Source: Baekduia alba (GTDB taxonomy: Bacteria; Actinomycetota; Thermoleophilia; Solirubrobacterales; Solirubrobacteraceae). From it: 64,000 nt of DNA. A model generated the notes under the pieces. The model was not told the DNA's origin. It saw nothing but the letters and a program-made list of their open reading frames with translations, and did no database searches. Made by a program: the position numbers and the translations under genes. Below, one piece after another: positions 25,177-44,057 of this stretch. The number at the start of each line of letters is the position of its first letter. Position 1 is the first letter of the stretch. The stretch is taken from contig NZ_CP114013.1 of assembly GCF_028416635.1 (NCBI RefSeq), positions 2,790,001 through 2,854,000 on the forward strand, in the 5' to 3' direction.

Positions 25177-27756
25177 ATGCGCTCGCTCTCGCTTTTCGTT
25201 CTGGGGTCCTTGCTGCTCGCGCTGGGGGCCGCCGGCGCCGCCGGCGCGGCGACGTGGTCGCCCTCGGCGGTCGGGGAGGCGCCGCTCGGCGGCGGCGTCT
25301 TCCGCTTCCCGCAGGCGGTCGCGGTCAGCCCGGGCGGCCAGACGGTCTTCGTGGGCGACCAGAGCTCCAGCGTCGTGCAGGCCTTCGGCCCCGACGGCGC
25401 GGTCAAGTTCTCGGTCGGCTTCCAGTCGACGCGGCGCGAGGCCGGGCGGATCGGGATCGTCGGCGGCGTGGCGACCGACCGGTCCGGCCACGTGTACGTG
25501 CTCGACGCGCAGAACGAGCGCGTCCAGGCCTTCGACGCATCCGACGGGCACTACCTGGCGCAGTTCGGCGACGCCTCGGTGTTCGACCTGCTCTCCGGCG
25601 ACCCGGCGACGATCGGCGGCGGCCGCAGCGCGTCGGGTCTCGCGGTCGTCCAGGGTCCCGGCCAGCCGCCGGTCGTCTACGTCGCCGATCAGGGCAACGA
25701 GCGCGTGGAGCGCTTCGTGCTGGATCCGACGACGCTGACGCCGACGGGCGCGCCGGCGCTGAGCCCGGCCGGCGTCGACCTCTCGGCGCCGCAGGGGATC
25801 GCGCTGGACCCGGGCGGTACGCGGGTCTACGTCGCCGACGACGACCACCACCGCGTCGTCGTCCTGCGGGCCGACACGCTGGAGCAGGTCGGGACGATCG
25901 GGTCGGAGGGCGCCGGGCCGGGACAGATGCAGAACCCCTACGACGTCGCGGTCGACGGCCACGACCCCAACCGCCTGTTCGTGGCCGACAACCTCAACAA
26001 CCGCGTGGACGTCTTCGACGCGACGTCGTTCGGCTTCCTCGGGACGCTGGGCGCCCAGGGCTACGGCCCGGGCACGGGCAACATGGCGATCGTGCGCTCG
26101 GTGGGCGCGCTCACCGACACGCCCGGCGGCGGCGTGGACGTGGCCGACACGGCCAACGACCGGATCCAGGCGTTCGACGTCAACAACGGCATTCGCGCGA
26201 TCTGGGGCACGTCCGGGCGCGGGCCGGGGTACTTCACGCGGCCCGAGGGCGTGGCCTTCGCGCCCGACGGCGGGATCGCGGTGGCCGACTCGTTCGACGA
26301 GCGGATCGGGCTGTTCGCCGCCGACGGCACGTGGACCGGGCTGCGCGGGCAGGTCAGCGCCTCGACGGGCTTCGCGACCGAGGGCAGCAACCCCGGCCAG
26401 TACAACCTGCCCCACGACGCGGCCTACGACGGCGCCGGGAACCTGTGGGTCGCCGACACGGGCAACAACCGCGTGCAGGAGCTCGGCCCCGACGGGGCCG
26501 TGAAGGCGATCGTCGCGGTGGGGCGCCCGCTGGGGATCGCGGCGGCGCCGGGCGGCGGCGCGTTCGTCGCCGGGTCGCGCGACGGCGTGGTCGTCAGGAT
26601 CGAGGCCGACGGGACCACGACGAGCACCGTCCGGTCCGGCCTGGCCCATCCGGCCGCGGTGGCCGTCGCGCCGGACGGGACGCCCTTCGTCGCCGACGAC
26701 GTCAGCGTTCGCAATGTGGTGGACAACGCGTTGGTGGCCGCATCGGGCGGCGGGACGGCGTGGGATCGCCCGTCGGGGCTGGGCTTCGGTCCGGACGGCG
26801 CGCTGTACGTCGCCGAGCAGCGGCCGGGCACGGCGACGGGTGCGCGCGTGGTGGTCAGCGCCAGCGCGGCGGGCGCGTCCTGGGCGACGTTGGCCGACGA
26901 GGGCAACGGCGCCGCGCAGGTCATCGACCCCGGTGGCCTGGCGGTGAGCGCCGACGGCGGGACGGTCCTGGTGGCCGACACCGGCAACGACCGGGTCCTG
27001 CGCCTCGACGCCGCGGGCCACGCGCCGCCGCCGCGCGGCGAGCTGTCGGTCGCCGTGAGCGGGATCGACCGCGGCACCGTCGTGAGCGACCTGCCGGGCA
27101 TCGCCTGCGTCAGCGACTGCGCGCAGCACTTCGGCGTTGGGCGGACGGTGACGCTGACCGCGCGCCCGCGGCCTGGCTCGGTCCTGTCGGTGTGGACGGG
27201 CGCGTGCTCGGGCAGCGCGGCGACGTGCACGGTCACGATGAGCGGCGACCAGCACGTAGGGGTGATCTTCGCGGCGCCGCCGCCGGTGGTCGCGCCGCCG
27301 GCCGCGCCCGTTCCCGCACCCAAGCCGCGCGCGGCGGCCGTCGTCCTGACGTCGGTGCGGCTGAGCACGCACGCGCTGCGCCCGGCGCGCAAGGCCAACC
27401 GCCGCCGGCACGTGCGCGCCCGCAAGGCCACCCGCGCCACCGGAACCGTCCGCGTCACGCGCCCGGCGACGCTCAGCGTGCGGGTGCAGGTCGGCCGCCC
27501 GGGCCGGCGCGCCGGCTCCTCGTGCGTCGCGATCACGAAGGCCAACCGGCGCCGGGCCAAGTGCACGCGCTACGTCACGACGGCGCGGGCGAAGTCGCTG
27601 AAGCCGGGCGCGAAGACCGTGCGCTTCGCCGTGACCTCGTCGTTCGGCGCGTCGCGGACGCTGCCGGTCGGCAGCTACCGCCTGAGCGTCGCGGCGCTCG
27701 ACGCCGACGGCAACCGCTCGGGCCCGCGCACGGTGAGCTTCAAGGTGGTGCGCTAG
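25177..27756 (+). CDS. Secreted NHL-repeat beta-propeller protein with InlB-type repeat
   Basis: An 859-residue exported protein. A signal peptide covers residues 1-27 (LLLALGAAGAAGAA). Repeated NHL units follow to about residue 615, many ending in VYVADQGNERVERF-, LFVADNLNNRVDVF- or LWVADTGNNRVQEL-like strings, so one or two propellers. Next comes a small two-Cys repeat of the bacterial InlB-B type (ACVSDCAQHFGVGRTVTLTA, then VLSVWTGACSGSAATCTVTM). A C-terminal beta domain rich in Arg and Lys ends the protein. A role in surface binding is likely; no enzyme motif is seen. Confidence 0.82.
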   Translation: MRSLSLFVLGSLLLALGAAGAAGAATWSPSAVGEAPLGGGVFRFPQAVAVSPGGQTVFVGDQSSSVVQAFGPDGAVKFSVGFQSTRREAGRIGIVGGVATDRSGHVYVLDAQNERVQAFDASDGHYLAQFGDASVFDLLSGDPATIGGGRSASGLAVVQGPGQPPVVYVADQGNERVERFVLDPTTLTPTGAPALSPAGVDLSAPQGIALDPGGTRVYVADDDHHRVVVLRADTLEQVGTIGSEGAGPGQMQNPYDVAVDGHDPNRLFVADNLNNRVDVFDATSFGFLGTLGAQGYGPGTGNMAIVRSVGALTDTPGGGVDVADTANDRIQAFDVNNGIRAIWGTSGRGPGYFTRPEGVAFAPDGGIAVADSFDERIGLFAADGTWTGLRGQVSASTGFATEGSNPGQYNLPHDAAYDGAGNLWVADTGNNRVQELGPDGAVKAIVAVGRPLGIAAAPGGGAFVAGSRDGVVVRIEADGTTTSTVRSGLAHPAAVAVAPDGTPFVADDVSVRNVVDNALVAASGGGTAWDRPSGLGFGPDGALYVAEQRPGTATGARVVVSASAAGASWATLADEGNGAAQVIDPGGLAVSADGGTVLVADTGNDRVLRLDAAGHAPPPRGELSVAVSGIDRGTVVSDLPGIACVSDCAQHFGVGRTVTLTARPRPGSVLSVWTGACSGSAATCTVTMSGDQHVGVIFAAPPPVVAPPAAPVPAPKPRAAAVVLTSVRLSTHALRPARKANRRRHVRARKATRATGTVRVTRPATLSVRVQVGRPGRRAGSSCVAITKANRRRAKCTRYVTTARAKSLKPGAKTVRFAVTSSFGASRTLPVGSYRLSVAALDADGNRSGPRTVSFKVVR

Positions 27757-27795
27757 TCGCCGCGGGCGCGACGGCCGCTGTTAGCGTGGTCGGCG

Positions 27796-28890
27796 ATGAC
27801 GGTGCTGAGCCGGCGGGCCCTGAACCGCGCGCTGCTTGCGCGGCAGCTGCTGCTGGGGCGCGCGGAGCACGTGACGGCGGAGGAGGCCGTCGAGCGCCTC
27901 GCGGGCGTGCAGGCCCAGGCGCCGCGGGCGCCCTACGTCGGGTTGTGGTCGCGGCTCGCGCGCTGGGAGCCGACCGAGTTGGAGGCCTTGCTCGTGGAGC
28001 GCACGGTGGTCCGCACCTGGCTGATGCGCGCGACCGTCCACCTCGTCTCCGCCCGCGACGCGCAGGCCTGGGCGCCGGTGTTCGCCGACGTCCGCCGCCG
28101 GCGCTTCGCGGCGAGCCCGTTCGCCAAGCGCCTGGCCGGCCTGGACCTGGAAGCGGTCGCCGACGCGCTGCACGCGGTGCTGGCCGAGACGCCCCTCACC
28201 CGCACCGAGCTGGCGCAGGCGATGGGCGCGCGCTTCCCCGGCGCCGACGTCGAGGCCCTCGGCTACGTCGCCGCCTTCCGCGGGTTCGTCGTCCAGCCCC
28301 CGCCGCGCGGGCTGTGGGAACGGGGCGGGCCGGCGCGGCTCGTCCCGATGGCGCAGTGGCTGGCCGCCGGCGGCGAGGCCGCCACGCCCGCCGAGGTCGT
28401 CCGTCGCTACCTCGGCGCCTTCGGCCCGGCCACGCTCGCCGACGTCGCGACGTGGTCCGGGCTCGCCGGCTGCGCGGAGATCGTCGACCCGCTGCGCGCC
28501 GACCTCGTCACCTTCACCGACGAGCGCGGACGGGAGCTGCTCGACCTGCCCGATGCGCCGCGGCCGGACCCCAAGACGCCGGCGCCGCCGCGGTTCCTGC
28601 CCGAGTACGACAACGTCCTGCTCTCGCACGCCGACCGCGCCCGCGTCATCGACGTCGAGCGGCGGGTCCCGCTGCCGCCGGGCAACGGCGGCGCGCGCGG
28701 CACGCTGCTCGTCGACGGCTTCTGGCGGGCCGAGTGGGCGCTGCAGGCGCCCGGCACGCTGCGCGTCGCGCCGTTCGCCCCATGGGCCAAGCGTCACGAC
28801 GCGGCGGTGATGCGCGAAGGTGCGGCGCTGCTCGCCCTGATCGCACCCGACGCCCAAGACCACCATGTCGCCATCGCTCCCGTCGCTTGA
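27796..28890 (+). CDS. HTH_42 winged-helix protein, AlkZ-like DNA glycosylase (QxQ type)
   Basis: A 364-residue member of the winged-helix HTH_42 superfamily. It opens with LSRRALNRALLARQLLLGR and has the motif LAGVQAQAPRAPY, where Q39-A-Q41 matches the QxQ catalytic motif of AlkZ-type glycosylases that unhook DNA crosslinks and bulky adducts. TWLMRATVHLVSARDAQAW and LGAFGPATLADVATWSGL are other family marks. The next gene is a paralogue that overlaps it by 26 bp. The glycosylase activity is inferred from the motif; family members are often annotated only as winged-helix DNA-binding proteins. Confidence 0.8.
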   Translation: MTVLSRRALNRALLARQLLLGRAEHVTAEEAVERLAGVQAQAPRAPYVGLWSRLARWEPTELEALLVERTVVRTWLMRATVHLVSARDAQAWAPVFADVRRRRFAASPFAKRLAGLDLEAVADALHAVLAETPLTRTELAQAMGARFPGADVEALGYVAAFRGFVVQPPPRGLWERGGPARLVPMAQWLAAGGEAATPAEVVRRYLGAFGPATLADVATWSGLAGCAEIVDPLRADLVTFTDERGRELLDLPDAPRPDPKTPAPPRFLPEYDNVLLSHADRARVIDVERRVPLPPGNGGARGTLLVDGFWRAEWALQAPGTLRVAPFAPWAKRHDAAVMREGAALLALIAPDAQDHHVAIAPVA

Positions 28891-29980
28891 CCGCCGCGCG
28901 CTGAACCGCGCGCTGCTCGCCCGCCAATGGCTCCTGGAGCCCCGGACCGCGACGGCGCTCGAGGCGATCGAGCACCTCGTCGGGCTCCAGGCCCAGGACG
29001 TCAAGGCACCGTACTTCCAGCTCGTCCCGCGTCTGGCCGCCTACGATCCCAGCGAGTTGTCGTCGTTGCTCGAGTCGCGCGCCGCGGTCCGGATCGTGCT
29101 GATGCGCGGCACGATCCACCTCGTCTCCGCCCGCGACGCGCACGCGCTGCGGCCGCTCGTCCAGCCCGTGATCACGCGCGCCACGGACGGCAACCACGCG
29201 GTGTCCGCCGACCGTGCGCAGCTCACGCGCGCTGGCCGGCAGCTCGTCGAGGCGCAGCCGCGCACGTTCGCCCAGCTCGCCGAGCTGCTCGGCCCGCGCT
29301 TCCCCGACGACGACCCGCCGGCGCTCGCGCAGCAGATCCGCGCCCGCGTCCCGCTCGTCCAGGTCCCACCGCGCGGCCTCTGGGGCCGTTCGGGCGCGCC
29401 CGCGCACACGTCGCTGGAGGCCTGGACCGACCACCACGACGCCGCCACCGTCGACGACCTCGTCGGCCGCTACCTCGGCGCCTTCGGCCCGGCGACCGTC
29501 CAGGACATGCAGAAGTGGTCCGGCCTGACCCGGCTGGCCGAGGCCTTCGCGCGGCTCCGCGGCGACCTGGTGGTCTTCACCGACGCCGAGACCGGCAAGC
29601 GCGAGCTCTTCGACCTGCCCGACGCCCCGCGCCCGGCCGGCGCCGACGCCGATCCCCGGCTCGACCCGATCCTCGTAGGGCCGTTCGACAACCTCATCCT
29701 GTCCCACGCCGACGCGAGCCGCGTCCTGCCCCAGGAGCACCGCACCAAGGTCATGACCCAGAACGGGCTGATCGCGGGCCTGGTCCTGATCGACGGCGTC
29801 GTCGCCGGCAACTGGCGGATCAAGGCCACCAAGAAGCTGGCGGCGCTGACGATCGCCCGCTTCACCACCAAGCCCTACACCAAGCGCGACACCGCGCAGA
29901 TCGTCGCGCGGGCCGAGCGGCTCCTCGCCCTCGCGGCGCCCGACGCCACTCGCGACGTCGTGTTCACGCCGCCCGGCTGA
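28865..29980 (+). CDS. HTH_42 winged-helix protein, AlkZ-like DNA glycosylase (QxQ type)
   Basis: A 371-residue paralogue of the preceding gene, with the same opening (DRRALNRALLARQWLLEP), QxQ motif (LVGLQAQDVKAPY, Q42 and Q44), RIVLMRGTIHLVSARDAHAL and LGAFGPATVQDMQKWSGL. The tandem arrangement and 26-bp overlap suggest duplication followed by divergence, with different substrate ranges likely. Its 3' end overlaps the convergent P450 gene by 17 bp. Established members protect DNA from alkylating or crosslinking natural products. Confidence 0.8.
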   Translation: MSPSLPSLDRRALNRALLARQWLLEPRTATALEAIEHLVGLQAQDVKAPYFQLVPRLAAYDPSELSSLLESRAAVRIVLMRGTIHLVSARDAHALRPLVQPVITRATDGNHAVSADRAQLTRAGRQLVEAQPRTFAQLAELLGPRFPDDDPPALAQQIRARVPLVQVPPRGLWGRSGAPAHTSLEAWTDHHDAATVDDLVGRYLGAFGPATVQDMQKWSGLTRLAEAFARLRGDLVVFTDAETGKRELFDLPDAPRPAGADADPRLDPILVGPFDNLILSHADASRVLPQEHRTKVMTQNGLIAGLVLIDGVVAGNWRIKATKKLAALTIARFTTKPYTKRDTAQIVARAERLLALAAPDATRDVVFTPPG

Positions 29981-31388
29981 GCACCACGACGCGCGCGCCG
30001 CGCGCCGGGATCATCGTCACGTTGCGATGGACGGCGCGCTCGGGCTCCGGGACGTCGGCCGCCAGGTCGAGCCGCCGCGCCATCGCCTCCAGCACGACGC
30101 GCTGCTCGGCCATCGCCAGCGCCGCGCCGAGGCAGCGCCGGATGCCGCCGCCGAACGGGATCCACGTGTAGGTGCCGGGCTTGTGGCCCTCCCAGCGCTC
30201 GGGCCGGAACGCGAACGGGTCCGGGTAGACGTCCTCGCGGTGGTGGATCAGCAGGATGCTCATCGTCACCGGCGTGTCGGCCGGGACGGCGTACTCGCCC
30301 AGGCGCCACGGCACCTTCACGCGCCGGCCGATGATCGGGATGACCGGCCGCGAGCGCATCGCCTCGGTGATCGTCTGCTCGACGACCGTGGCCGAGAGCT
30401 CGGCGTCGCCGCCGCGGACCGCGTCGCGCAGGCGCTCGTAGGCCGCCGGTGTCCGGACCAGCCGCTCCCACGTCCACGCCAGCGAGTTGGCGGTCGTCTC
30501 GTGGCCGGCGAGCACGAGCGTCAGCAGCTCGTCGCGCAGCTCGTGGTCGGTCAGCGCCTCGCCGTCCTCGGTCCGCGCCCGCAGCAGCAGCGACAGGATG
30601 TCCTGGCGCTCCTCGACGTCGGCGGCCGCCCGGCGCGCCGCGATCACCGCGTAGGTCGGGCGGTCCAGCAGCTCGAGGCCCGCCTTGGTGATCCCGACCG
30701 GCTCCTCGCGACCGATGTTCATCAGCTCGGCGAGCTGCGCGGTCTTCCACGTCGATGCCTGGACCAGGCCCTTGATCGCCCGGCGCAGCCCGTGCTCGGG
30801 CGTCCCGCGCTTGAGCTCGCCGTCGATCCCGAAGATCCCGGCCATGATCACGTCGAGCGTGATCGCCTGCATGCGCGGGGCCAGCGCGATCGGCTCGCCG
30901 ACGGGCCACGTCGCGATCTCGCGCTCGGCGGCGTCGCTGATCATCTGCTCGTAGCGCTCGATCGCCTCGCCGTGGAACGGCGGCAGCAGCAGCTTGCGCT
31001 GGCGCATGTGGCGCGGGCCGATCGCGGTCAGCACCGAGTTGGGCCCGACGATCGGACGCAGCGGCGACTCGCCGGTCAGCGACGGCGCCTGATCGGGCTT
31101 GGCCGTGAAGAGCGACTGGACGTGGTCCGGGTGCGAGGTGATCACCGGATCGCCCGGGACGATCCCGCGCATCCGGAAGACCTCGCCGTGGCGGCGCCGG
31201 CCGCCGAAGACGAAGTCGATCTGGCGCTGGTTGAACCGCAGCACCTGGAGAGCGCGCGGCAGCTGGATCATCGGCGGGAGCGGCAGCGCCGCGGCCTCGG
31301 CGCCGTCGATCGGGCCGGCGGGCGACGGTGGCGCCTCACCCATCAGCGGGCGGTCGTCATCGACGGAGACTGCTTGAGCGAGCGTCAT
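29964..31388 (-). CDS. Cytochrome P450
   Basis: A 474-residue soluble-type P450. The oxygen-activation helix reads LAGHETTANSLAW, the ExxR motif is EAMR and the heme loop FGGGIRRCLG has the cysteine ligand. The overall pattern (PERWEGHKPGTYTWIPFGGG) resembles the CYP102/CYP110-like bacterial fatty-acid or terpenoid hydroxylases. No reductase or ferredoxin gene is adjacent. A perfect 20-bp palindrome lies 56-75 bp upstream of the ATG, suggesting repression by a TetR-type factor. It is flanked by DNA glycosylase genes. Confidence 0.9.
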   Translation of the reverse strand: MTLAQAVSVDDDRPLMGEAPPSPAGPIDGAEAAALPLPPMIQLPRALQVLRFNQRQIDFVFGGRRRHGEVFRMRGIVPGDPVITSHPDHVQSLFTAKPDQAPSLTGESPLRPIVGPNSVLTAIGPRHMRQRKLLLPPFHGEAIERYEQMISDAAEREIATWPVGEPIALAPRMQAITLDVIMAGIFGIDGELKRGTPEHGLRRAIKGLVQASTWKTAQLAELMNIGREEPVGITKAGLELLDRPTYAVIAARRAAADVEERQDILSLLLRARTEDGEALTDHELRDELLTLVLAGHETTANSLAWTWERLVRTPAAYERLRDAVRGGDAELSATVVEQTITEAMRSRPVIPIIGRRVKVPWRLGEYAVPADTPVTMSILLIHHREDVYPDPFAFRPERWEGHKPGTYTWIPFGGGIRRCLGAALAMAEQRVVLEAMARRLDLAADVPEPERAVHRNVTMIPARGARVVVLSRAA

Positions 31389-31443
31389 GACACCAGCGAG
31401 TGTGCCATGGATCGGTGTAACGGTTGTGTGCGGTGGCGCACGG

Positions 31444-31463
31444 TTCTGACCGCGCGGTCAGAA
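31444..31463. promoter_or_regulatory. Perfect 20-bp palindromic operator upstream of the P450 gene
   Basis: TTCTGACCGCGCGGTCAGAA reads the same on both strands. It lies 56 bp upstream of the P450 ATG, in the 305-bp gap 31389-31693 between the divergent P450 and YcaQ-like genes. The GACCG-CGGTC core is the style of TetR-family operators. No TetR gene is in the window. The rest of the gap holds a 12-bp stem at 31609-31639, a short GTCCACGCC tandem near 31650 and nothing that looks coding. Confidence 0.65.
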
Positions 31464-31608
31464 GCGATACGCGCTGACGACGCGACCGATGGACAGGCTT
31501 GTGTCCGGACGATCGACTCTGGAACCTCGAACGGTGTGGATCCTCGAGCTTCATCCGTCCGCCACGGTGAGGTTCGCGCGAGACGGGGCGGCGGCGCGCG
31601 CCGAGCCT

Positions 31609-31639
31609 CGGCCCGAGGACGGCCGACGTCCTCGGGCCG
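31609..31639 (+). promoter_or_regulatory. 12-bp hairpin in the leader of the YcaQ-like gene
   Basis: The arms 31609-31620 and 31628-31639 are perfectly complementary and enclose a 7-base loop (GGCCGAC). It ends 54 bp before the ATG of the YcaQ-like gene. It could be an attenuator in that leader or a stand-alone terminator for a short transcript. There is no T-tract. Confidence 0.4.
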
Positions 31640-31693
31640 CTCGCTGGCGGTCCACGCCGTCCACGCCGTGCGGCAACATGACGCGTCCCGTCG

Positions 31694-32929
31694 ATGCCCG
31701 CCCGCTCCCCATCCCGCCGTCGCGCGACGCTCTCGGCTGCCGAGGCGCGTCGGGTCGCGCTTGCTGCCCAGGGCTTCGCCGAGCCGCGTGCGCTCGACCG
31801 TCCCGTCGATGCGCGCGCGTTGCGTGCGCGGGTGATCGATCGCGTCGGCCTGATCCAGATCGACTCCGTCAACGTGCTGCAGCGCGCGCACTACCTGCCG
31901 GCGTTCAGCCGGCTCGGGGCCTACGACGTCGCCGCCCTGGACAAGCTCGCGCACTACGCGCCGCGCCGGCTGTTCGAGTACTGGGGGCACGAGGCGTCGC
32001 TGATCCCGGTCGAGCTGCACCCGCACCTGCGCTGGCGGATGCGCCGCGCGCACGACGACGCGTGGGGCGGCATGCGGCGGATCGCGCAGGACCGGCCGGA
32101 GCTCGTCGCCGCCGTCCTCGACGACATCCGTGCGCGCGGGCCGCTGACCGCCGCCCAGCTCGGGCACCTCGACGAGCCGCGCGGCAAGAAAGGCCCGTGG
32201 TGGGACTGGTCCGACGTCAAGCGCGCGCTGGAGTTCCTGTTCTGGTCGGGTGAGATCACGAGCGCGCGGCGGCGCCGGTTCGAGCGGCTCTACGACGTGC
32301 CCGAGCGCGTGCTGCCGGCCGCGGTCGTCAACGCGCCGACGCCGAGCGACGAGGAGGCCCAGCGCGAGCTGCTGCGCGTCGCCGCCCGGTCGCTGGGCGT
32401 CGCGACCGAGCCCGACCTGCGCGACTACTTCCGGCTGCCGGCGGCCGACGCGAAGCTGCGCGTGCCCGAGCTGGTGGAGGCCGGCGAGCTGCTGGCGGTC
32501 GAGGTCGAGGGCTGGGGGCGCGGGCCGGCGTACCTCGCGCCGGGCGCGCGGGTGCCGCGGCGCGTCGACGCGCGGGCCCTGGTCGGGCCGTTCGACTCGC
32601 TGATCTGGGAGCGGCCGCGGGTCGAGCGCGTCTTCGGCTTCCGCTACCGGATCGAGATCTACGTGCCCAAGGAGCAGCGCGTGCACGGCTACTACGTGCT
32701 GCCGCTGCTGCTCGGCGACCGGCTGGTCGCGCGCGTCGACCTCAAGTCCGACCGCGCGGCCAGCGCGCTGCTCGTCCAGGCCGCGCACGCCGAACCCGAG
32801 GCGCCGGAGGAGACGGCGGAAGTCCTGGCGCAGCAGCTGCGGGCGATGGCCGCGTGGCTGGGGCTCGACGACGTGACGGTCGTCGGGCCGGGCGACCTGG
32901 CGCCGGCGCTGGCCGGCGCGCTGCGGTGA
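31694..32929 (+). CDS. YcaQ/AlkX-type DNA crosslink-repair glycosylase (QxD type)
   Basis: A 411-residue HTH_42 protein more like E. coli YcaQ (AlkX) than the two AZL paralogues nearby. The motif LIQIDSVNVLQRAHY contains Q55-I-D57, the QxD catalytic signature of that branch, and FEYWGHEASLIPVELHPHLRWRM is the next YcaQ hallmark. The C-terminus has RIEIYVPKEQRVHGYYVLPLLLGDRLVARVDLK, also family-typical. These enzymes remove bulky N7 adducts and unhook interstrand crosslinks. The ATG at 31694 gives an Arg/Ser-rich N-terminus; a later start is possible. Confidence 0.83.
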   Translation: MPARSPSRRRATLSAAEARRVALAAQGFAEPRALDRPVDARALRARVIDRVGLIQIDSVNVLQRAHYLPAFSRLGAYDVAALDKLAHYAPRRLFEYWGHEASLIPVELHPHLRWRMRRAHDDAWGGMRRIAQDRPELVAAVLDDIRARGPLTAAQLGHLDEPRGKKGPWWDWSDVKRALEFLFWSGEITSARRRRFERLYDVPERVLPAAVVNAPTPSDEEAQRELLRVAARSLGVATEPDLRDYFRLPAADAKLRVPELVEAGELLAVEVEGWGRGPAYLAPGARVPRRVDARALVGPFDSLIWERPRVERVFGFRYRIEIYVPKEQRVHGYYVLPLLLGDRLVARVDLKSDRAASALLVQAAHAEPEAPEETAEVLAQQLRAMAAWLGLDDVTVVGPGDLAPALAGALR

Positions 32930-33030
32930 GGTGCGGGCCGCCCCCGGCCTGGCGGTGCGGGTAGCTCTCCCGGCGTTGGCGTAGGGGTTCTCCCGATGAC
33001 GCGGGCACGGCGCGCTGGGACGGTGGCGCC

Positions 33031-33819
33031 ATGCTCACGCGCCGTCTCCCACTCCTGCTCGCCCTGGCCGCGCTCGTCGCCGCCGCGATCGCGCAGCCCG
33101 CATCCGCCCGCGGCGGCTTCCACCACGCGCGCTTCCTCGTCACGTTCGACGGGACGGTCCACAGCGCCTGGAACCTCCCGAAGTACCGGGCCGCCCAGGA
33201 CTGCTACCGCTCCACGATGTTCGAGGCCGGCGGCGAAGAGACCTGGCACGTCGCCTCGACCGGGGAGAACAAGGTGCTGGCCTTCGACAACGGCGTCGCC
33301 ACCCAGTTCCAGTTCGGCAGCTGGGTGATGAACGCCGACACGGGCCAGACCGCGCTCAAGGCCAAGGGCCAGGTCAACCGCAGCCGCCATCAGAGCACGA
33401 CCTACGAGGCGGGCACCTGCGGGATCACGGCGCCGCCGCTGGACTGGGACGAGCCCAAGCCGCCGATGGACTGCGGCACGCGGCTGGTCAACTACGAGGT
33501 CCAGCTCGGCTGGACGGGCGCGACGGCCGTCAAGCTGGCGCCCGACGTCGTCACCGGCGAGAACGGCGTCCGCGAGAAGCTGGGCTTCGACAACTGCACG
33601 CTGGTCACGCCCAACAACGTCCTGGCCGGCTCCTGGCCCGCGGCGACCGGTCGCATCACGTCCAAGGGCAAGCCCATGAGCAGTTACTGGGGCAGGCAGA
33701 GGACGTTCACCGCGACCGGCCACGAGAGCTGGAGCGCGCAGCGGCCGGTCGAGACCGTCACCCAGACGGCGAGCGTGACGATCGACTGGAAGCTGACGTT
33801 CACCCGGGTCAAGGGGTGA
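33031..33819 (+). CDS. Secreted protein of unknown function
   Basis: A 262-residue protein with a signal peptide (LPLLLALAALVAAAIAQPASA, cleavage near residue 27). The mature part is beta-rich, with Cys in AQDCYRST, AGTCGIT, PMDCGTR and FDNCTL, probably two disulfides, and many aromatic residues. No domain is recognised. It stands alone between two convergent or divergent neighbours; the 100-bp upstream gap contains an imperfect palindrome (AGGGGTTCTCCCGATG, 32983-32998). It overlaps the GNAT gene end by 11 bp. Confidence 0.65.
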   Translation: MLTRRLPLLLALAALVAAAIAQPASARGGFHHARFLVTFDGTVHSAWNLPKYRAAQDCYRSTMFEAGGEETWHVASTGENKVLAFDNGVATQFQFGSWVMNADTGQTALKAKGQVNRSRHQSTTYEAGTCGITAPPLDWDEPKPPMDCGTRLVNYEVQLGWTGATAVKLAPDVVTGENGVREKLGFDNCTLVTPNNVLAGSWPAATGRITSKGKPMSSYWGRQRTFTATGHESWSAQRPVETVTQTASVTIDWKLTFTRVKG

Positions 33820-34306
33820 GGTCGCCGGCGAGCAGCTCCATGAGCAGCCCGTCGTGCCAGCCCTCGCCGCCGGTGGCGCGCTCGTAGGCGCGCATCACGC
33901 CGACCGGGCGGAAGCCGACCTTGGTGTAGGCCTTGATCGCCCGGGCGTTCGCCGCCGCCGGATCGATGGTGATCCGGTGGTGGCCGCGGTCGCCGACCAG
34001 GAGCGCCGCGATCCGTCGCACGGCCTCGGTCCCGAGGCCCTGGCCGTGGTGGGCGGGGTCGAGGTAGACGTCGATGTTCGCGTGCCGGTACTTCGGCTCG
34101 TCCTCCTCCCAGAACTGGACGAGGCCGGCGACCGCGCCGTCGACGAGGATCGTGAAGCGGACCGACTCCGGGTCGTCGGTCAGCGGGAAGCCCGGGTCGG
34201 GCGCGTCCCACCAGCGCGCCACCTCCGGCGTCGCGAGGATCCGGAGCAGCTCCGGCGCGTCGGCCGGTGCGAGCGGCCGGAGCGTGAGGCGCTCGCGCGC
34301 CGTCAC
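33809..34306 (-). CDS. GNAT acetyltransferase, AAC(6')-like
   Basis: A 165-residue N-acetyltransferase. The acetyl-CoA site is HHGQGLGTEAVRRIAALL (motif A), preceded by YRHANIDVYLDP and followed by NARAIKAYTKVGFRPVGVMR. This arrangement, with LRPLAPADAPELLRIL and ARWWDAPD in the N-terminus, is shared with aminoglycoside 6'-acetyltransferases of the Ib/chromosomal group. Many chromosomal relatives acetylate unknown small molecules, so resistance should not be assumed. The start is a GTG overlapping the stop of a small membrane protein gene. Confidence 0.78.
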   Translation of the reverse strand: MTARERLTLRPLAPADAPELLRILATPEVARWWDAPDPGFPLTDDPESVRFTILVDGAVAGLVQFWEEDEPKYRHANIDVYLDPAHHGQGLGTEAVRRIAALLVGDRGHHRITIDPAAANARAIKAYTKVGFRPVGVMRAYERATGGEGWHDGLLMELLAGDLTP

Positions 34307-35726: not shown

Positions 35727-35891
35727 TCAGGCGGGGTGGTGGCGGTCAACGCGCCCGCGGCGCAGCATGGCGCGGACGCGCTGGGTCATGTACGCGGTGA
35801 GCGCGGTGACGCCGGCGACGCCGACCGGCGCGAAGCCGAGGAGCGTCTCCTCGATCGGGATGCCGGCGAGGTGGGCGCCGAGGAACGTCAT
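35727..35891 (-). CDS. Small membrane protein at the end of the CO dehydrogenase operon
   Basis: A 54-residue protein read as MTFLGAHLAGIPIEETLLGF followed by APVGVAGVTALTAYMTQRV and a basic tail. One hydrophobic segment spans about residues 18-37. Its ATG (35891-35889) overlaps the XdhC stop by four bases, which is strong support for a real, coupled gene. It may be a membrane or envelope partner of the cox operon (compare the small membrane proteins coxK or coxH), but nothing identifies it. Confidence 0.6.
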   Translation of the reverse strand: MTFLGAHLAGIPIEETLLGFAPVGVAGVTALTAYMTQRVRAMLRRGRVDRHHPA

Positions 35892-36967
35892 GTCGCCTGG
35901 TGCACGCGGCCGCGGGCGTCCTTGAGGCGGCCGCCGTCGCGGCCGTGGCGGACGGCGATCAGCTCGGCGAGGATCGAGACCGCGGTCTCCTCGGCGGTCA
36001 CGGCGCCGAGGTCGAGGCCGACCGGCGCGGAGAGGCGGGCGAGGTCGGCGTCGTCAAAGCCGGCGGCGCGCAGGCGCTCCCGGCGGCGGGCCTGCGCGCG
36101 GCGGCTGCCCATCGCCCCGATGTACGGCGCGTCGGAGCGCAGCGCCAGGCCGAGCGCGGCGTCGTCGAGCTTGGGGTCGTGGGTCAGCACGACGACCGCG
36201 GTCGCGCGGTCGACGCCGCCCAGCACCGGGACGGCCTCCTGCGGCCACTGCGCGACCACGCGCTCGGCCGCGGGGAAGCGGCTCGCGGTGGCGAAGCGCG
36301 ACCGCGGGTCGATGACGAAGACGCGCCAGCCCGCGACGGTGGCCAGCGCCGCGAGCTGCGCGGCGAAGTCGACGGCGCCGAAGACGAGCAGGCGCGGCGG
36401 CGGGGCGACGGCGTCGACGAAGACGCGGCCATGCGGCGTGTCGTGCAGGCCGCGGCGCTCGGTCCAGAGCGCCGCGGCCGCGAGGTCGAGGGCCGCGGCG
36501 TCGAGGTCGGGGTCGCCGAGCGTGCCGTCGGCGTGGGCGTCGGCGCCGACGAGCAGCGTCGCACCAGGTTGGGGCACTTGGCCGTCGACGGCGGTGACCA
36601 GCGCGACGCGCTCGCCGTCGCGGATCCGGCGGGCGAACGCCCCGCCGTGGCCGGCCGCGTCGTGGCGCTGGACCCAGATGTCGAGCTCGCCGCCGCAGGG
36701 CAGCCCGACGTCCCACGCCTCGGCGTCGGCGATGCCGTAATGCAGCAGGCGCGGCGGCCCGCCGGCGAGCACGTCGGCGGCGACCTCCACGACCGCGCTC
36801 TCGACGCAGCCGCCCGAGACCGCGCCCGCGACGTCGCCGTCGGCGTTGAGCGCGAGCTTCGCGCCCGGCGGCTGAGGCGCGGAGCGCTGCGTGTCGACGA
36901 CGGTCGCGGTGGCGACCTGGAGGCCTCGCGCCTCCCAACGGCCAAGGGCGTCGAGCAGCTCGCGCAT
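35888..36967 (-). CDS. XdhC-family molybdenum cofactor insertion chaperone
   Basis: A 359-residue protein with the XdhC layout: the N-terminal domain (GRWEARGLQVATATVVDTQR, then GAVSGGCVESAVVEVA with the conserved Cys) and a C-terminal Rossmann domain (RLLVFGAVDFAAQLAAL, then VFVIDPRSRFATASRF). XdhC proteins bring sulfurated Mo cofactor to molybdo-hydroxylases such as CO dehydrogenase. It is the last known gene of the cox operon, separated by 7 bp from coxG. A second XdhC-family gene (40377-41192) lies upstream, as usual in cox clusters (CoxF and CoxI). Confidence 0.88.
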   Translation of the reverse strand: MRELLDALGRWEARGLQVATATVVDTQRSAPQPPGAKLALNADGDVAGAVSGGCVESAVVEVAADVLAGGPPRLLHYGIADAEAWDVGLPCGGELDIWVQRHDAAGHGGAFARRIRDGERVALVTAVDGQVPQPGATLLVGADAHADGTLGDPDLDAAALDLAAAALWTERRGLHDTPHGRVFVDAVAPPPRLLVFGAVDFAAQLAALATVAGWRVFVIDPRSRFATASRFPAAERVVAQWPQEAVPVLGGVDRATAVVVLTHDPKLDDAALGLALRSDAPYIGAMGSRRAQARRRERLRAAGFDDADLARLSAPVGLDLGAVTAEETAVSILAELIAVRHGRDGGRLKDARGRVHQAT

Positions 36968-36974
36968 CGACCCG

Positions 36975-37718
36975 TCAGCTCCGCTTGCGGCCCAGCAGGA
37001 ACGCGCCGAGCGCGAGGACGAGGGCCAGGACGCCGAGCGTCTTGGGATCGCGCAGGCGACCGAGGGCGACGGCCTTGACGAGGGAGCCGACGGGCAGCGC
37101 CGCGGCCTCGGCCGGCGAAGGCGGCGGAGACGCCGGAGGAACGGCGCGCGGGGGCTCGGGGGCGGCGGCCGGCCGAGCCTCCGCGGCGTGCGGCGCGTCG
37201 GCCTCCACGGCGGCGTGCGGCGCGTGGGCCTCCACGGCGGCGGGCGCCGGGCCCGCGGCCTCCGCGGCGCCCCCGCGCTCGACCATCCCCGCGAGGTTCT
37301 GCGCGAACGTGTCGGTCAGCGAGGCGGCGACGTCCTTGAGCACACCCTGGCCCATGGCGGCGGCCTTGCCCGACATCTGCATCGTCGTCGTGATCGAGGC
37401 CTCGGTCCCACCGGGCTGCTCGCGCAGGGCCATGCGGATGTCGGCGGAGGCGGTGCCCTGGCCGCGGGCCTCCTTGGCCTTCGCGCGCATCGTCGCCAGG
37501 TGCGCGACGACGTCCTTGTCGAGGATCTCGACGTCGCCCTTGTAGTTCATGGTCATCGGCCCGAGCCGGACCTTGACGGCCACCTTGTAGGCGTCGTCGC
37601 CGGTCTGCTCCAGCACCTGCGCGCCGGGCATGCACGGCGCGATGCGCTCGACGTCGAGCAGCAGGTCCCAGACCTCGTCGAGCGGGGCCTGGACCAGGAA
37701 CGTGTTCTCGAACTCCAT
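36975..37718 (-). CDS. coxG: CoxG-family SRPBCC membrane protein
   Basis: A 247-residue protein. The SRPBCC (START-like) domain (residues 1-145) opens MEFENTFLVQAPLDEVWDLL and has the CPxxM-like patch CMPGAQVLEQ. A Pro/Ala/His-rich linker with a 9-residue tandem repeat follows, then one C-terminal membrane segment (LGVLALVLALGAFLLG). CoxG anchors CO dehydrogenase to the cytoplasmic membrane, and in recent work it delivers quinone to the enzyme. It lies 11 bp after coxE, in the usual D-E-G order. Confidence 0.9.
   Translation of the reverse strand: MEFENTFLVQAPLDEVWDLLLDVERIAPCMPGAQVLEQTGDDAYKVAVKVRLGPMTMNYKGDVEILDKDVVAHLATMRAKAKEARGQGTASADIRMALREQPGGTEASITTTMQMSGKAAAMGQGVLKDVAASLTDTFAQNLAGMVERGGAAEAAGPAPAAVEAHAPHAAVEADAPHAAEARPAAAPEPPRAVPPASPPPSPAEAAALPVGSLVKAVALGRLRDPKTLGVLALVLALGAFLLGRKRS
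37186..37239. repeat. 27-bp tandem repeat inside coxG
   Basis: Two copies of a 27-bp unit (37186-37212 and 37213-37239) differ at one base. They encode the repeat AAVEAxAPH in the linker between the SRPBCC domain and the membrane tail. A slipped-strand length polymorphism would alter the linker length without a frameshift. Confidence 0.75.
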
Positions 37719-37729
37719 GTTGTCGTCCT

Positions 37730-38920
37730 TCAGCTCGGGATCGTCCGCGCGCCGATCGCCGCGATGGCGTCGCCGAGCGCAAGCAGGTTGTGGCCGCCGA
37801 CCAGCGCATCGCAGGACGGCAGCGCGGCCGCCATCCCACCCGCGGCGGGCGCGAAGCCGGGCGCGGCCAGCCGCGGGTTGACCCAGACGACGCGGTGGGC
37901 CAGCCGGCGCAGGCGCGCCATCTCGCGGCCGACGACGTCGGGGTCGCCGACCTCCCAGCCGTCGGAGACGATGACCACGACCGCGCCGCGCGCCATCCCG
38001 CGCCGGCCGTGCTCGGCGTTGAACCGCGCGAGCGCCGCGCCGATCCGCGTGCCGCCCGACCAGTCCGGGGCCGCGGCCGCCGCCCGCGCGATCGCGAGAT
38101 CGGGCTGGTGGCCGCGCAGCGCGCGCGTCAGCCGGGTCAGGCGCGTGGCGAACACGAACGCCTCGGCGTCCGCGCCGCCGACAGCGCTGTGCAAGAACAT
38201 GAGGAACGCGCGCGAGTAGGGCTCCATCGAGCCCGAGACGTCGCAGAGGACCACGAGCGGCCGGTGCGCGCGCAGGCGCCGGCGGCGCAGCTGCCGGACC
38301 GGGTCGCCGCCGGTGCGATGGCTGGCGCGCAGCGTCGCGCGGACGTCGAGGCGCTCGCCGCGGCGGGCCCGCCGCGCGCGCCGGGTCCGCCGCGTCGGCG
38401 TCGCCACGTGCAGCTGCTCCATCAGCCGGCGCAGCGCGAGCAGCTCGTCGGGCTCGACGTCGCCGAAGTCCTTGGCGGCCAGCCGCTCGCCGGCGCTGGC
38501 GACGGGCACGGCGAGCGCGCTGGCGTCGGCGTCGTCGCCGGGCGCGGCGGTGGGGGAGGAGGACGGGCGCGCGCTGCCGCCCTCGTCCGCCGTTCGCGGC
38601 GCGCCGGGCGGCGGCCGCTGCGTCCCGCGCTCCAAGCCCGGCGGTGGCGGCGCGTGCGGGTCGCCGCGCGCGTCGGCCGGGTCGACGACGCCGTCGAAGA
38701 CCCGCGCGAACACGCCGTCGAACGCGCCGACCTGCGCGTGGCCCGAGACGAACACCGCCCGCGCCGTCCAGTACAGCCGGTCCCGGGTGGCCGGCGGCGC
38801 GACCTGCAGCGCCCGCGCGAACCGCACCGACCGCTCCGGCGAGCACGGGATGCCGGCCTCGCGCACCGCGCGCCCGAAGCGCGCGGCGAGCAGCGGGAGG
38901 TCCACCGCGTCAGGCGGCAT
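37730..38920 (-). CDS. coxE: CoxE-like VWA domain protein (CO dehydrogenase maturation)
   Basis: A 396-residue protein with an intact VWA metal site (VVLCDVSGSMEPYSRAFLMF) in the second half, preceded by an acidic/Ser-rich linker (about 110-150). The N-terminus has the CoxE pattern RFGRAVREAGIPCSPERSVRF. CoxE cooperates with the AAA+ ATPase CoxD to load copper and sulfur into the CoxL active site. It overlaps coxD by 11 bp. Confidence 0.9.
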   Translation of the reverse strand: MPPDAVDLPLLAARFGRAVREAGIPCSPERSVRFARALQVAPPATRDRLYWTARAVFVSGHAQVGAFDGVFARVFDGVVDPADARGDPHAPPPPGLERGTQRPPPGAPRTADEGGSARPSSSPTAAPGDDADASALAVPVASAGERLAAKDFGDVEPDELLALRRLMEQLHVATPTRRTRRARRARRGERLDVRATLRASHRTGGDPVRQLRRRRLRAHRPLVVLCDVSGSMEPYSRAFLMFLHSAVGGADAEAFVFATRLTRLTRALRGHQPDLAIARAAAAAPDWSGGTRIGAALARFNAEHGRRGMARGAVVVIVSDGWEVGDPDVVGREMARLRRLAHRVVWVNPRLAAPGFAPAAGGMAAALPSCDALVGGHNLLALGDAIAAIGARTIPS

Positions 38921-39806
38921 CGCCGGCCTCCGCTCCGACCAGGCGGTCGAGCCCCGCGGCGCGCGTCGTCTCCTGGTCCTCGCGGTACTTCAGGACGGCG
39001 CCGAGCGTGCGGTCGGCGGCGACTGGGTCGAGCGCCGACAACCCCAGGGCGTGCAGCGCGGCGACCCAGTCGATCGCCTCCGCGATGCCCGGCGGCTTCT
39101 GGACGTCGGCGGCGCGCAGCCGCCGCACGGCGCGGGCGACCTCGGCGGCGAGGCGGTCGTCGGCGGCCGGGACGCGGCGGCGGACGATCTCGGCCTCGCG
39201 CTCGGGCGACGGGTAGTCGATCCAGTGGTAGAGGCAGCGGCGCTTGAGCGCGTCGTGCAGGTCGCGCGTGCGGTTGGACGTCAGGACCACGATCGGCGGG
39301 TGCTCCGCGCGGATCGTCCCGAGCTCGGGGATCGTCAGGGAGGCCTCGGCCAGCAGCTCCAGCAGGAACGCCTCGAAGTCGTCGTCGGCGCGGTCGAGCT
39401 CGTCGATGAGCAGGACCGCGGGGCGCGGGCCCGGATGCTCGATGGCCATCAACAACGGCCGCCGGATCAGGTAGTCGTCGGAGAACAGCGCGTCCTCCGA
39501 GAGCTGCGCGTCGCCGGCCTCGGCCAGCCGGATCGCCAGCAGCTGGCGCGGGTAATTCCACTCATACAGCACTTCCGCCGAGTCGATCCCCTCGTAGCAC
39601 TGCACGCGGATCAGCGGCGTGTCCAGCGCTGCCGCCAGCGCCTTGGCCGCCTCGGTCTTCCCGACGCCGGCCTCGCCTTCGAGCAGCAGCGGCTGGGGGA
39701 GGGCCAAGGCCAGGTACAACGCGGTGGCGAGCCCGTCGTCGGCGAGGTAGTCGACCGCGGCCAGGCGGGCCGCGAGCGCGTCGGGATCGGCGAGGCCGAG
39801 GCTCAC
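38910..39806 (-). CDS. coxD: MoxR-type AAA+ ATPase CoxD
   Basis: A 298-residue AAA+ ATPase with Walker A LLEGEAGVGKTEAAKALAAA, Walker B AVLLIDELDRADDDFEAFL, sensor VLTSNRTRDLHDALKRRC and the arginine finger region. MoxR-type CoxD unfolds apo-CoxL so the Mo-Cu cluster can be completed, acting with CoxE. The GTG start at 39806 overlaps the stop of the mocA-like gene (GTGA). Confidence 0.9.
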   Translation of the reverse strand: MSLGLADPDALAARLAAVDYLADDGLATALYLALALPQPLLLEGEAGVGKTEAAKALAAALDTPLIRVQCYEGIDSAEVLYEWNYPRQLLAIRLAEAGDAQLSEDALFSDDYLIRRPLLMAIEHPGPRPAVLLIDELDRADDDFEAFLLELLAEASLTIPELGTIRAEHPPIVVLTSNRTRDLHDALKRRCLYHWIDYPSPEREAEIVRRRVPAADDRLAAEVARAVRRLRAADVQKPPGIAEAIDWVAALHALGLSALDPVAADRTLGAVLKYREDQETTRAAGLDRLVGAEAGDAA

Positions 39807-40384
39807 CGCCGCACCGCCTCGTAGTCCTCCCACGTGTCGACGTCGCGCGGGACCGGGCCGGCGACCGGGACCTCGACGACGCGGTCGGCGTGCCGCTTCA
39901 GCAGCTTCCACACCGCCTTGTCGCCGTGCAGGTCGGCCAGCGCGGCGAACGTGCTGCGCGAGAACGCGAACGGATGCCCGCGGCCGTCGTCGTAGCGGCA
40001 GACCGCGTACGCCGCGTCGCCGCGGCCGGCGAGCAGCGCGTCCACCATCGCGGTCGTCACGCCTGGCTGGTCGCCGAGCAGCAGCACCAGGACGTCGATC
40101 GACGGCCGCACCGCGCCCAGCGCCGCCGCGATCGACGACGAGCACCCGGCGCCGAACGCGGCGTTGTGCACCACCTCGACGTCGCGGAGGTCGACCTGCG
40201 CGACCACGTCCTGCGCCGCGCCGCCGACCGCGCAGAGGAGCTGCTCGAAGCCGCACGCGCGGGCGGTGGCGAGCGAGTGGTCCAACAGCGTCCGCTCCCC
40301 GAACGGGAGCAGGTGCTTGGGCTGCCCGAGGCGGCGTGAGCCGCCCGCGGCCAGGACCAGGCCGCAGACCCGGGCGTCAGCCAT
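39803..40384 (-). CDS. mocA: Molybdenum cofactor cytidylyltransferase (MocA/MobA family)
   Basis: A 193-residue nucleotidyltransferase with the signature LVLAAGGSRRLGQPKHLLPFG (LAAGxSxRxGxxK) and the metal-binding LLLGDQPGV. MocA attaches CMP to the molybdopterin, making the MCD cofactor used by CO dehydrogenase. It lies between xdhC and coxD within the cox operon and overlaps both neighbours. Some operons use an adenylyl or guanylyl relative; CODH needs the cytosine dinucleotide form, hence the call. Confidence 0.85.
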   Translation of the reverse strand: MADARVCGLVLAAGGSRRLGQPKHLLPFGERTLLDHSLATARACGFEQLLCAVGGAAQDVVAQVDLRDVEVVHNAAFGAGCSSSIAAALGAVRPSIDVLVLLLGDQPGVTTAMVDALLAGRGDAAYAVCRYDDGRGHPFAFSRSTFAALADLHGDKAVWKLLKRHADRVVEVPVAGPVPRDVDTWEDYEAVRR

Positions 40385-41192
40385 GGCCGTGGCAGCAGTC
40401 GCCGACGCCGTGCTCCATGGTCGGCACCTGCACCGGCACGCCCGGGACCGGCGTCCCGCGCGGCGCGCCCGAGCGGCGCTCGTCGACGATCGCCGCCAGG
40501 ATCGACAGCGCGATCTCCGGCGGCGTCCGCGCGTGGATGTCCAGGCCCGCGGGCGTGTGCAGCCGCGCGCGCAGCTCGTCCGGCAGGTCCAGCGACGCCC
40601 GGACGGCCTCGCCGCGGCGCGGCGACGCGACCAGCCCGACGTAGGGCACGCCCTCGTTGAGCGCCGCGCACAGCGCCGCCTCCTCGTCGCGCCCATGTGA
40701 CGCGACCACCAGCGCCAGGTCCTCGCCGCTGACGGCCACGACGCCGGCGGCCGGCGCGACCGGCTCGAGCCCGAGGTGCGGCGCCAGCTCGCGCAGCGCC
40801 AGGGCCACCGGCGCGTCGCCGACCACGAGGACGCGCGGCGGCGGCAGCGCCGGGTCCAGGAAGATCTCCAGCGCGCCGCCGCTCAAGCACGGGTTGTGCT
40901 CGACGATCGCGCCGTCGTCGGCCTCCTGGCCGTCCGCCGGCGCGCCATCCTGAACCAACCGCAACAACAACGGCTCGCCCGTCTCCATCGCCCGCAGCGC
41001 GTGCAGCCGCACCGAGGACTCCGCGCACACCCCGCCGACGAAGCCCTCGACGGTCCCGTCGGCGAGCACCAGCGCGACGTCGCCCGGCCGTGCGCTCGTC
41101 GGCGACCGCGCGTGCACGACCGTGGCGACGACGTACGCGGACCGCGCGGCGGCCAGCGCCCGCGCCCGCTCCGAGAGCCGCGCGCCGATCAT
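40377..41192 (-). CDS. XdhC-family maturation protein of CO dehydrogenase
   Basis: A 271-residue protein with an XdhC domain: AYVVATVVHARSPTSARPGDV, FVGGVCAESSVRLHALRAM with the conserved Cys, RVLVVGDAPVALALREL and YVGLVASPRRGEAV. It ends in a Cys/His-rich tail (HGVGDCCHGHG) that could bind a metal. It directly follows coxL (ATGA overlap), in the position of coxF, and would deliver or sulfurate the Mo cofactor. It precedes the mocA-like gene. Confidence 0.85.
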   Translation of the reverse strand: MIGARLSERARALAAARSAYVVATVVHARSPTSARPGDVALVLADGTVEGFVGGVCAESSVRLHALRAMETGEPLLLRLVQDGAPADGQEADDGAIVEHNPCLSGGALEIFLDPALPPPRVLVVGDAPVALALRELAPHLGLEPVAPAAGVVAVSGEDLALVVASHGRDEEAALCAALNEGVPYVGLVASPRRGEAVRASLDLPDELRARLHTPAGLDIHARTPPEIALSILAAIVDERRSGAPRGTPVPGVPVQVPTMEHGVGDCCHGHG

Positions 41193-43561: not shown

Positions 43562-43564
43562 GGC

Positions 43565-44053: not shown

Positions 44054-44057
44054 CGCC

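What the first reader, a model, noticed from the sequence alone, without database searches (positions are those of the whole stretch)
27796..32929. Three HTH_42 DNA glycosylase paralogues around a P450
Two tandem AlkZ-like genes (QxQ motif) and one AlkX/YcaQ-like gene (QxD motif) lie within 5 kb, with a P450 between them. QxQ enzymes are known to guard producers of DNA-crosslinking natural products such as azinomycin. The clustering of both types with an oxidase suggests a dedicated defence against, or self-resistance to, a DNA-alkylating compound. No biosynthetic core genes are visible, so resistance to others is as likely.
Basis: partly seen in the sequence, partly recalled or inferred. Interest (0 to 1): 0.65.

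Follow-up and report, generated by a model that had tools for sequence, protein, structure and literature searches.

The report
Clustered DNA-repair glycosylases beside a P450
A soil actinobacterium carries three enzymes that cut damaged bases out of DNA side by side, next to an oxidising enzyme; this is most likely a local genotoxin-protection spot built from known enzyme families rather than the self-protection of an antibiotic producer.

Summary
Three PF06224 (HTH_42) genes, A and B (QAQ) and Y (QID), lie in 5.1 kb with a P450 between B and Y. The genome has only four PF06224 genes, so this is not chance placement. A and B are predicted AlkZ-fold glycosylases with the catalytic pair intact. 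Y is close to T. fusca AlkX. A and B overlap, so are probably co-transcribed, but are not a recent duplication. The P450 runs against B and has its own upstream region. B-P450 occurs in four of seven genus genomes, B-P450-Y in three; 20 P450 orthologue loci elsewhere hold no HTH_42 gene. No PKS, NRPS or terpene core appeared in 50 of 68 predicted window proteins, so producer self-resistance is unsupported. Glycosylase genes cluster more than expected in 30 chosen genomes. An AAC(6')-like acetyltransferase family, with one copy near Y, abuts HTH_42 genes in two other genera. Best reading: a lineage-specific genotoxin-repair neighbourhood; the P450's involvement is unproven.

The parts
27796..28890 (+). 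A: AlkZ-like (AZL, QxQ) HTH_42 DNA glycosylase, 364 aa, Q39/Q41
   Evidence: Pfam 259 bits; both glutamines invariant in 25 of 25 aligned proteins; AF2 pLDDT 89.6, VIA Z 32.9 to AlkZ 5uuj
28865..29980 (+). B: AlkZ-like (AZL, QxQ) HTH_42 DNA glycosylase, 371 aa, Q42/Q44; start overlaps the end of A by 26 nt
   Evidence: Pfam 261 bits; AF2 pLDDT 92.2, VIA Z 33.5 to AlkZ 5uuj; orthologues 72% and 67% in G006 and G005, 55% over a partial gene in G004
29964..31388 (-). Cytochrome P450, 474 aa, convergent with B (17-nt overlap), heme motif FGGGIRRCLG
   Evidence: Pfam 185 bits; heme signature; orthologues 84.5%, 82%, 81% beside B in G006, G005, G004
31444..31463 (.). Perfect 20-bp palindrome TTCTGACCGCGCGGTCAGAA, 55 nt before the P450 start codon; possible operator
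   Evidence: only site in the genome at up to 2 mismatches; imperfect copies at a similar place in G006 and G005, none seen in G004
31694..32929 (+). Y: AlkX/YcaQ-like (YQL, QxD) HTH_42 DNA glycosylase, 411 aa
   Evidence: Pfam 244 bits; phmmer 417 bits over residues 6-394 to T. fusca AlkX 9zd6; in the QxD clade of the tree
33809..34306 (-). AAC(6')-like GNAT acetyltransferase; neighbour, possibly part of the detoxification neighbourhood
   Evidence: NF000225 188 bits, below its cut-off of 250; homologues 18, 27 and 124 nt from HTH_42 domain hits in G016, G015, G119
25177..27756 (+). NHL-repeat protein, same strand, 39 nt before A; possible first gene of the A-B transcript
   Evidence: Pfam NHL 102 bits; in G006 B follows its orthologue within about 30 nt

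Best explanation
A lineage-specific genotoxin-repair neighbourhood. Y is an AlkX-type glycosylase that excises simple N7-alkylguanines and unhooks interstrand crosslinks (inferred from homology). A and B are two AlkZ-fold glycosylases, probably made from one transcript, that each excise a narrower class of bulky guanine adducts from unknown environmental genotoxins (substrates inferred only). The resulting AP sites pass to ordinary base excision repair (established for the family). B settled beside Y and a P450 early in the genus, and A joined B later or was lost in the sampled relatives. The P450 has its own upstream region and is either an unrelated neighbour or oxidises a related xenobiotic. 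Shown here: family, motifs, predicted fold, gene order, synteny. Inferred: substrates, co-transcription, role of the P450.
For: Families and motifs. Intact QxQ in 25 of 25 and AlkZ fold. Y close to T. fusca AlkX, whose 7mG and crosslink activity is published (PMC9040887 section 9). Genome has 4 family members, 3 of them here. B-P450 is present in 4 of 7 genus genomes and B-P450-Y in 3 although flanking genes changed (a SnoaL-type gene instead of NHL before B in G005; extra genes before Y in G006). 9 adjacent HTH_42 pairs within 10 kb in 30 genomes (counted by hand) against 1.02 expected. No biosynthetic core among 50 of 68 predicted window proteins. AAC(6')-like GNATs abut HTH_42 genes in G015, G016, G119, a MerR gene precedes the AZL in G013, G014, G016 (Pfam-checked in G013 and G016), and MarR and MFS genes adjoin the QxD gene in G031 and G057 and lie about 2 kb from it in G119 (Pfam-checked in G031 and G119).
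Against: No substrate or expression data. Conservation of the block is limited to one genus: G001 has Y without B, G004 has B-P450 without Y at that place, G002 and G003 have neither. Three of these six relatives (G002, G004, G005) are only 65-81% complete, so absences there are weak. The 30 genomes were chosen by me after several clusters had been seen, and they are related. No exact or one-mismatch LexA-type box (CGAAC-N4-GTTCG, consensus recalled) lies near A, P450 or Y, so there is no sign of damage induction. MFS and MarR genes are common, so their adjacency may be chance.
Confidence: 0.55

Rival explanations
1. Coincidental neighbours: three ordinary DNA-repair genes and an unrelated P450 that landed together and are kept only by shared descent in one genus; no common task.
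For: Mixed strands, no single operon; orthologous P450s sit in varied other contexts; Y neighbourhoods differ from genus to genus in 36 loci; B-P450-Y seen in one genus only.
Against: About 5e-6 for three of four family members within 4 kb; A and B overlap and are not a recent duplicate; HTH_42 pairs recur in other genera.
Confidence: 0.27
2. P450-coupled protection: the P450 makes or activates a DNA-reactive metabolite (or oxidises a genotoxin) and B, later A, repairs the resulting adducts.
For: All 4 orthologues of B found in the genus are directly beside this P450, whereas P450 orthologues occur without B in G001 and G003; a second AZL in the genus (G002) also has a different P450 nearby. 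Bradley et al. suggest that P450s could turn cluster products into alkylators (PMC9040887 discussion).
Against: Opposite strand, separate putative operator; of 191 HTH_42 hits none outside this genus has a P450 signature within 5 kb; the shared position can be one inherited event.
Confidence: 0.13
3. Self-resistance of a producer of a DNA-alkylating natural product (as AlkZ for azinomycin).
For: AZL genes are enriched in biosynthetic clusters in Streptomyces and some clusters hold two AZLs (PMC9040887 sections 6-7).
Against: No PKS, NRPS or terpene core among 50 of 68 predicted window proteins; A and B outside the AlkZ clade; YQL genes were never within 20 kb of a cluster in Streptomyces.
Confidence: 0.05

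Closest known systems
AlkX / YcaQ (YQL subfamily of HTH_42), e.g. T. fusca AlkX 9zd6
   Same: Y: QxD motif, near full-length similarity (417 bits), one copy of its type in the genome, no biosynthetic core found nearby
   Different: In Streptomyces the YQL neighbourhood is reported as nearly invariant; here it varies by genus and in three genomes of this genus includes an AZL and a P450
AlkZ (azinomycin self-resistance glycosylase, 5uuj)
   Same: A, B: QxQ motif and AlkZ fold (VIA Z 32.9 and 33.5)
   Different: 22% identity in the structural alignments; separate clade; no biosynthetic cluster found
TxnU2/TxnU4 and LldU1/LldU5 paired AZLs of the trioxacarcin and LL-D49194 clusters (PMC8934636, passages)
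   Same: Two AZL paralogues in one locus
   Different: Those pairs are QxQ plus HxQ inside polyketide clusters; here both are QxQ, adjacent, and no cluster was found; direct sequence comparison not made

Membership tests
HTH_42 / AlkZ-like family PF06224 (A, B, Y) | Score above the Pfam gathering cut-off over the full domain | tested here: met
   259, 261, 244 bits against 25.9; profile 1-328, 1-328, 1-329 of 329
HTH_42 / AlkZ-like family PF06224 (A, B) | AlkZ fold | tested here: met
   Predicted models align to 5uuj over 345 residues at 2.8 A (B) and 347 at 3.0 A (A)
AZL subfamily (A, B) | (Q/H)-aliphatic-Q catalytic motif | tested here: met
   QAQ; glutamines invariant in 25 of 25
AZL subfamily as self-resistance genes (A, B) | Located in or near a biosynthetic gene cluster | tested here: not met
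   No PKS/NRPS/terpene core among 50 of 68 predicted window proteins; antiSMASH not available, so other cluster types are not excluded
AZL subfamily (A, B) | Glycosylase activity specific for one cognate adduct | not testable with these tools
   Needs purified protein and adducted DNA
AlkZ orthology (A, B) | Groups with S. sahachiroi AlkZ in the tree | tested here: not met
   A and B in a 63-row clade (SH-aLRT 98) without AlkZ, which joins three HxQ proteins (SH-aLRT 95); AlkZ is a long branch and the tool warns about that join
YQL / AlkX subfamily (Y) | Q-aliphatic-D motif and strong similarity to a characterised YQL | tested here: met
   QID; E 7e-124 to T. fusca AlkX; 36-row QxD clade
YQL / AlkX subfamily (Y) | Near-invariant gene neighbourhood (reported for Streptomyces) | tested here: not met
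   Neighbours differ between genera in 36 loci; the Streptomyces gene set itself was not compared
YQL / AlkX subfamily (Y) | 7mG excision and crosslink unhooking | not testable with these tools
   Published for T. curvata and T. fusca proteins
Anti-phage defence proteins (PADLOC) | Match to a PADLOC model | tested here: inconclusive
   0 matches at E 0.01 for A, B, P450, Y and two neighbours

The most novel reading that the evidence does not exclude
A layered, cluster-independent genotoxin-resistance locus: a P450 and an AAC(6')-like acetyltransferase modify the compound, two specialised AlkZ-fold glycosylases remove its bulky adducts and AlkX removes crosslinks. Similar part-sets (MerR-GNAT-AZL, AZL-MarR-MFS-AlkX, QxD-GNAT) would be assembled independently across the family.
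Probability: 0.2. Interest if true: 0.6.

Novelty: new member of a known kind. Interest (0 to 1): 0.35.

Why it matters
AZL glycosylases are known chiefly as self-resistance enzymes of antibiotic producers, and YQL genes were reported away from biosynthetic clusters in a nearly fixed neighbourhood in Streptomyces (PMC9040887). A locus that joins two AZLs to a YQL without a biosynthetic cluster in sight would give test enzymes for what stand-alone AZLs do, and would caution against using AZL genes alone as markers of genotoxin clusters.

Tried and rejected
Recent tandem duplication of A and B: rejected. B groups with its three genus orthologues (bootstrap/SH-aLRT 100/99) and A with G071 and G067 (98/88). 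An older common origin of A and B is not excluded: the AU test does not reject A plus the B clade as one clade (p 0.138).

Damage induction through a LexA box: CGAACNNNNGTTCG (consensus recalled) with up to 2 mismatches gave 79 sites in the window against 54 expected. None is exact, and none of the one-mismatch sites is near the genes. No sigma-70-like promoter or terminator was found in 27400-33200.

P450 as a general partner of AZLs: 10 of 191 HTH_42 hits have a P450 signature within 5 kb, all in genus g1, and 2 of the 10 come from a duplicate record (L121 = L022) (signature recalled). A first version of the regex was wrong and found none; it was corrected. Many contigs are short, so the flanks scanned within 5 kb were 1.62 Mb in all.

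The G002 AZL with a P450 (43-45% identical, divergent, a short gene between that I read as a metallophosphoesterase by eye) was considered as a second instance; with about 9 P450 genes per genome (counted in G000 only) one such case can be chance.

RNA families: none at gathering threshold in the window; tRNAs: none. NCBIfam gave no match at E 0.001 for A, B or Y.

The empty-site test was inconclusive: in G001 the NHL and HrpA genes lie about 200 kb apart, and no AZL is seen in the gene lists of the two fetched regions.

Full report
OBSERVATION. A (27796-28890 +), B (28865-29980 +), P450 (29964-31388 -) and Y (31694-32929 +) are all there. A, B and Y match PF06224 far above cut-off and the P450 matches PF00067. 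The motifs are QAQ, QAQ and QID. The window is G000:C1:2790001-2854000 of a 5.86-Mb single-contig genome with four PF06224 genes found in all. The fourth, at 651945-652961, carries HSTD at the motif position, which fits the AZL2 class H-aliphatic-(S/T)-(D/E) of Bradley et al. 2022 (PMC9040887 section 5, read). Under random placement three of four gene starts within 3.95 kb has a probability of about 5e-6.

IDENTITY OF THE GENUS. G005, a member of the same genus group, corresponds to a record titled Conexibacter sp. isolate RYN_248 (same 7463-base contig length; gene positions mirror those of L022).

WHAT A, B AND Y ARE. The two glutamines are invariant in 25 of 25 aligned proteins. AlphaFold models of B (pLDDT 92.2) and A (89.6) align to AlkZ 5uuj with Z 33.5 and 32.9 and to AlkX 9zd6 with Z 26.3 and 26.5. 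Y matches 9zd6, the T. fusca enzyme (PMC13303869, passages), with E 7e-124. T. fusca and T. curvata YQL proteins excise 7mG and unhook crosslinks (PMC9040887 section 9), so Y very likely does too. In a 127-row tree A and B fall in a 63-row clade that excludes AlkZ, which joins HxQ proteins (AlkZ is a long branch, so its exact place is unsure). B's best named relatives outside the genus, at 45-55% identity, are in Cohnella, Paenibacillus, Myxococcus, Rubrobacter, Streptomyces and others (best 80 of 312; 36 of the 80 are Streptomyces). Of the 27 Streptomyces loci longer than 15 kb, 21 hold at least one and 15 hold all of four shared downstream gene families. I read this as a stable chromosomal site rather than varied biosynthetic clusters; antiSMASH was not run.

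GENE ORDER AND HISTORY. Two of the other six genus genomes keep B-P450-Y: G006 (B 70%, P450 84.5%, Y 87%; extra genes between P450 and Y) and G005 (66%, 82%, 84%, same order). G004 keeps B-P450; its 3.9-kb contig continues past the P450 without Y, and no Y was found in that genome (68% complete). G001 has Y alone and the P450 orthologue (81%) elsewhere. G003 has neither Y nor B; its nearest P450 is 73% identical and elsewhere. G002 has another AZL and another P450. So all four B orthologues found adjoin the P450, but the P450 occurs without B. No A-like gene was seen in the other six genomes, three of which are 65-81% complete; in G006 B follows the NHL gene within about 30 nt. A recent duplication is excluded (A-B identity 45%; B groups with its orthologues at 100/99). 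A groups with G071 and G067 (98/88), but the AU test does not reject A+B as a clade (p 0.138).

THE P450. Relatives at E up to 1e-40, of very varied identity, occur in 122 of 146 family genomes. Twenty fetched loci with the closest relatives outside the B-bearing genomes (64-81% identity) have varied neighbours (in L201 from G001 the gene caller did not return the P450 itself) and hold no HTH_42 match at E 1e-3 in 332 kb. A perfect 20-bp palindrome lies 55 nt before its start codon, unique in the genome at up to 2 mismatches, with imperfect forms in G006 and G005 and none seen in G004. That looks like a TetR-type operator (inference), so the P450 probably has its own control.

SURROUNDINGS. 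Fifty of 68 predicted window proteins were scanned with Pfam; the 18 left out are mostly short. Among the 50 are HrpA, a CO-dehydrogenase/xanthine-oxidase-type operon, an LLM oxidoreductase, ABC-transporter parts, an Indigoidine_A-like protein and a PfkB kinase. There is no PKS, NRPS or terpene core. PADLOC gives nothing for six proteins.

IS CLUSTERING A PATTERN? In 30 genomes that I picked from 108 with matches (contiguous ones and those with several copies, after several clusters had been seen), 126 genes formed 9 adjacent pairs within 10 kb in 8 genomes, against 1.02 pairs expected (pairs counted and fragments in one frame merged by hand). Grouped by genus these are four events: A-B and B-Y here, HxQ AZL with YQL in G031 (L026) and G025 (L225), and an HxQ plus QxQ pair in one genus (seen by motif in G134; by position only in G132, G133, G135). 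Outside that set, G122 and G052 also hold AZL pairs. In G031 the order is AZL, MarR, MFS exporter, YQL (MarR and MFS confirmed by Pfam); YQL adjoins members of the same two gene families in G057.

ACETYLTRANSFERASE LINK. The AAC(6')-like GNAT at 33809-34306 has homologues at E up to 1e-20 in 49 of 146 genomes. At least four of those 49 lie within 1 kb of an HTH_42 gene: the window copy (928 nt from the Y domain hit), G015 and G016 (27 and 18 nt from the AZL hit) and G119 (124 nt from a QLDT-type protein). In the 181 HTH_42 loci no other member of this GNAT family was found in the flanks held (phmmer E 1e-4). My hand estimate of the chance expectation is about 0.16. In G016 the order is MerR-GNAT-AZL with overlapping ends; in G015 GNAT and AZL overlap and the contig ends just upstream; in G013 and G014 a MerR gene adjoins the AZL directly (Pfam check of MerR in G013 and G016). 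The window copy is in no operon with Y, and G006 and G005 gave no match, so its membership here is suggestive only.

VERDICT. The proteins are new members of known enzyme subfamilies. The locus is a genus-level repair neighbourhood, most likely for environmental genotoxins; the substrate and the P450's part remain open. Of the literature I read PMC9040887 (sections 5-10) and passages of PMC8934636 and PMC13303869. Four searches listed no paper whose title or opening abstract describes an AZL-YQL-P450 locus; this is not proof of absence.

Noticed in passing
33809-34306 (-); L089 8931-9458; L092 160-687; L070 7295-7783: AAC(6')-like GNAT acetyltransferases directly beside HTH_42 glycosylase genes in G016, G015 and G119, and 0.9 kb from Y in the window; in G016 a MerR-GNAT-AZL row with overlapping ends.
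   Followed up: partly
L026 8501-12894 (G031): HxQ AZL, MarR regulator, MFS exporter and YQL in a row; exporter and YQL about 33 nt apart, so perhaps one transcript.
   Followed up: partly
G000:C1:651945-652961 (-), L025 6867-8123: Fourth HTH_42 gene with an HSTD motif, the AZL2 signature described for Streptomyces; similar proteins with HSTD in G001, G005 and G006.
   Followed up: partly
31444-31463: Perfect 20-bp palindrome upstream of the P450, unique in the genome at up to 2 mismatches; regulator unknown.
   Followed up: partly
L022 4357-4378: Perfect 22-bp palindrome TGTGACATCGATCGATGTCACA just upstream of the P450 in G005, with degenerate copies by eye at the same place in G006, G004 and the window.
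   Followed up: no
62786-63442 (+): AP_endonuc_2 (TIM-barrel) protein, 33 bits against a cut-off of 31; whether it is an AP endonuclease was not tested.
   Followed up: no
35888-44933 (-): CO-dehydrogenase/xanthine-oxidase-type operon with CoxG, CoxE, AAA, MobA-like and two XdhC-like genes; in G005 the LLM gene is instead followed directly by the flavodoxin-type gene.
   Followed up: no
L069-L075: A second QxD-type group with a QLDTIS motif, sister to the YQL clade, in several genera of the family.
   Followed up: no
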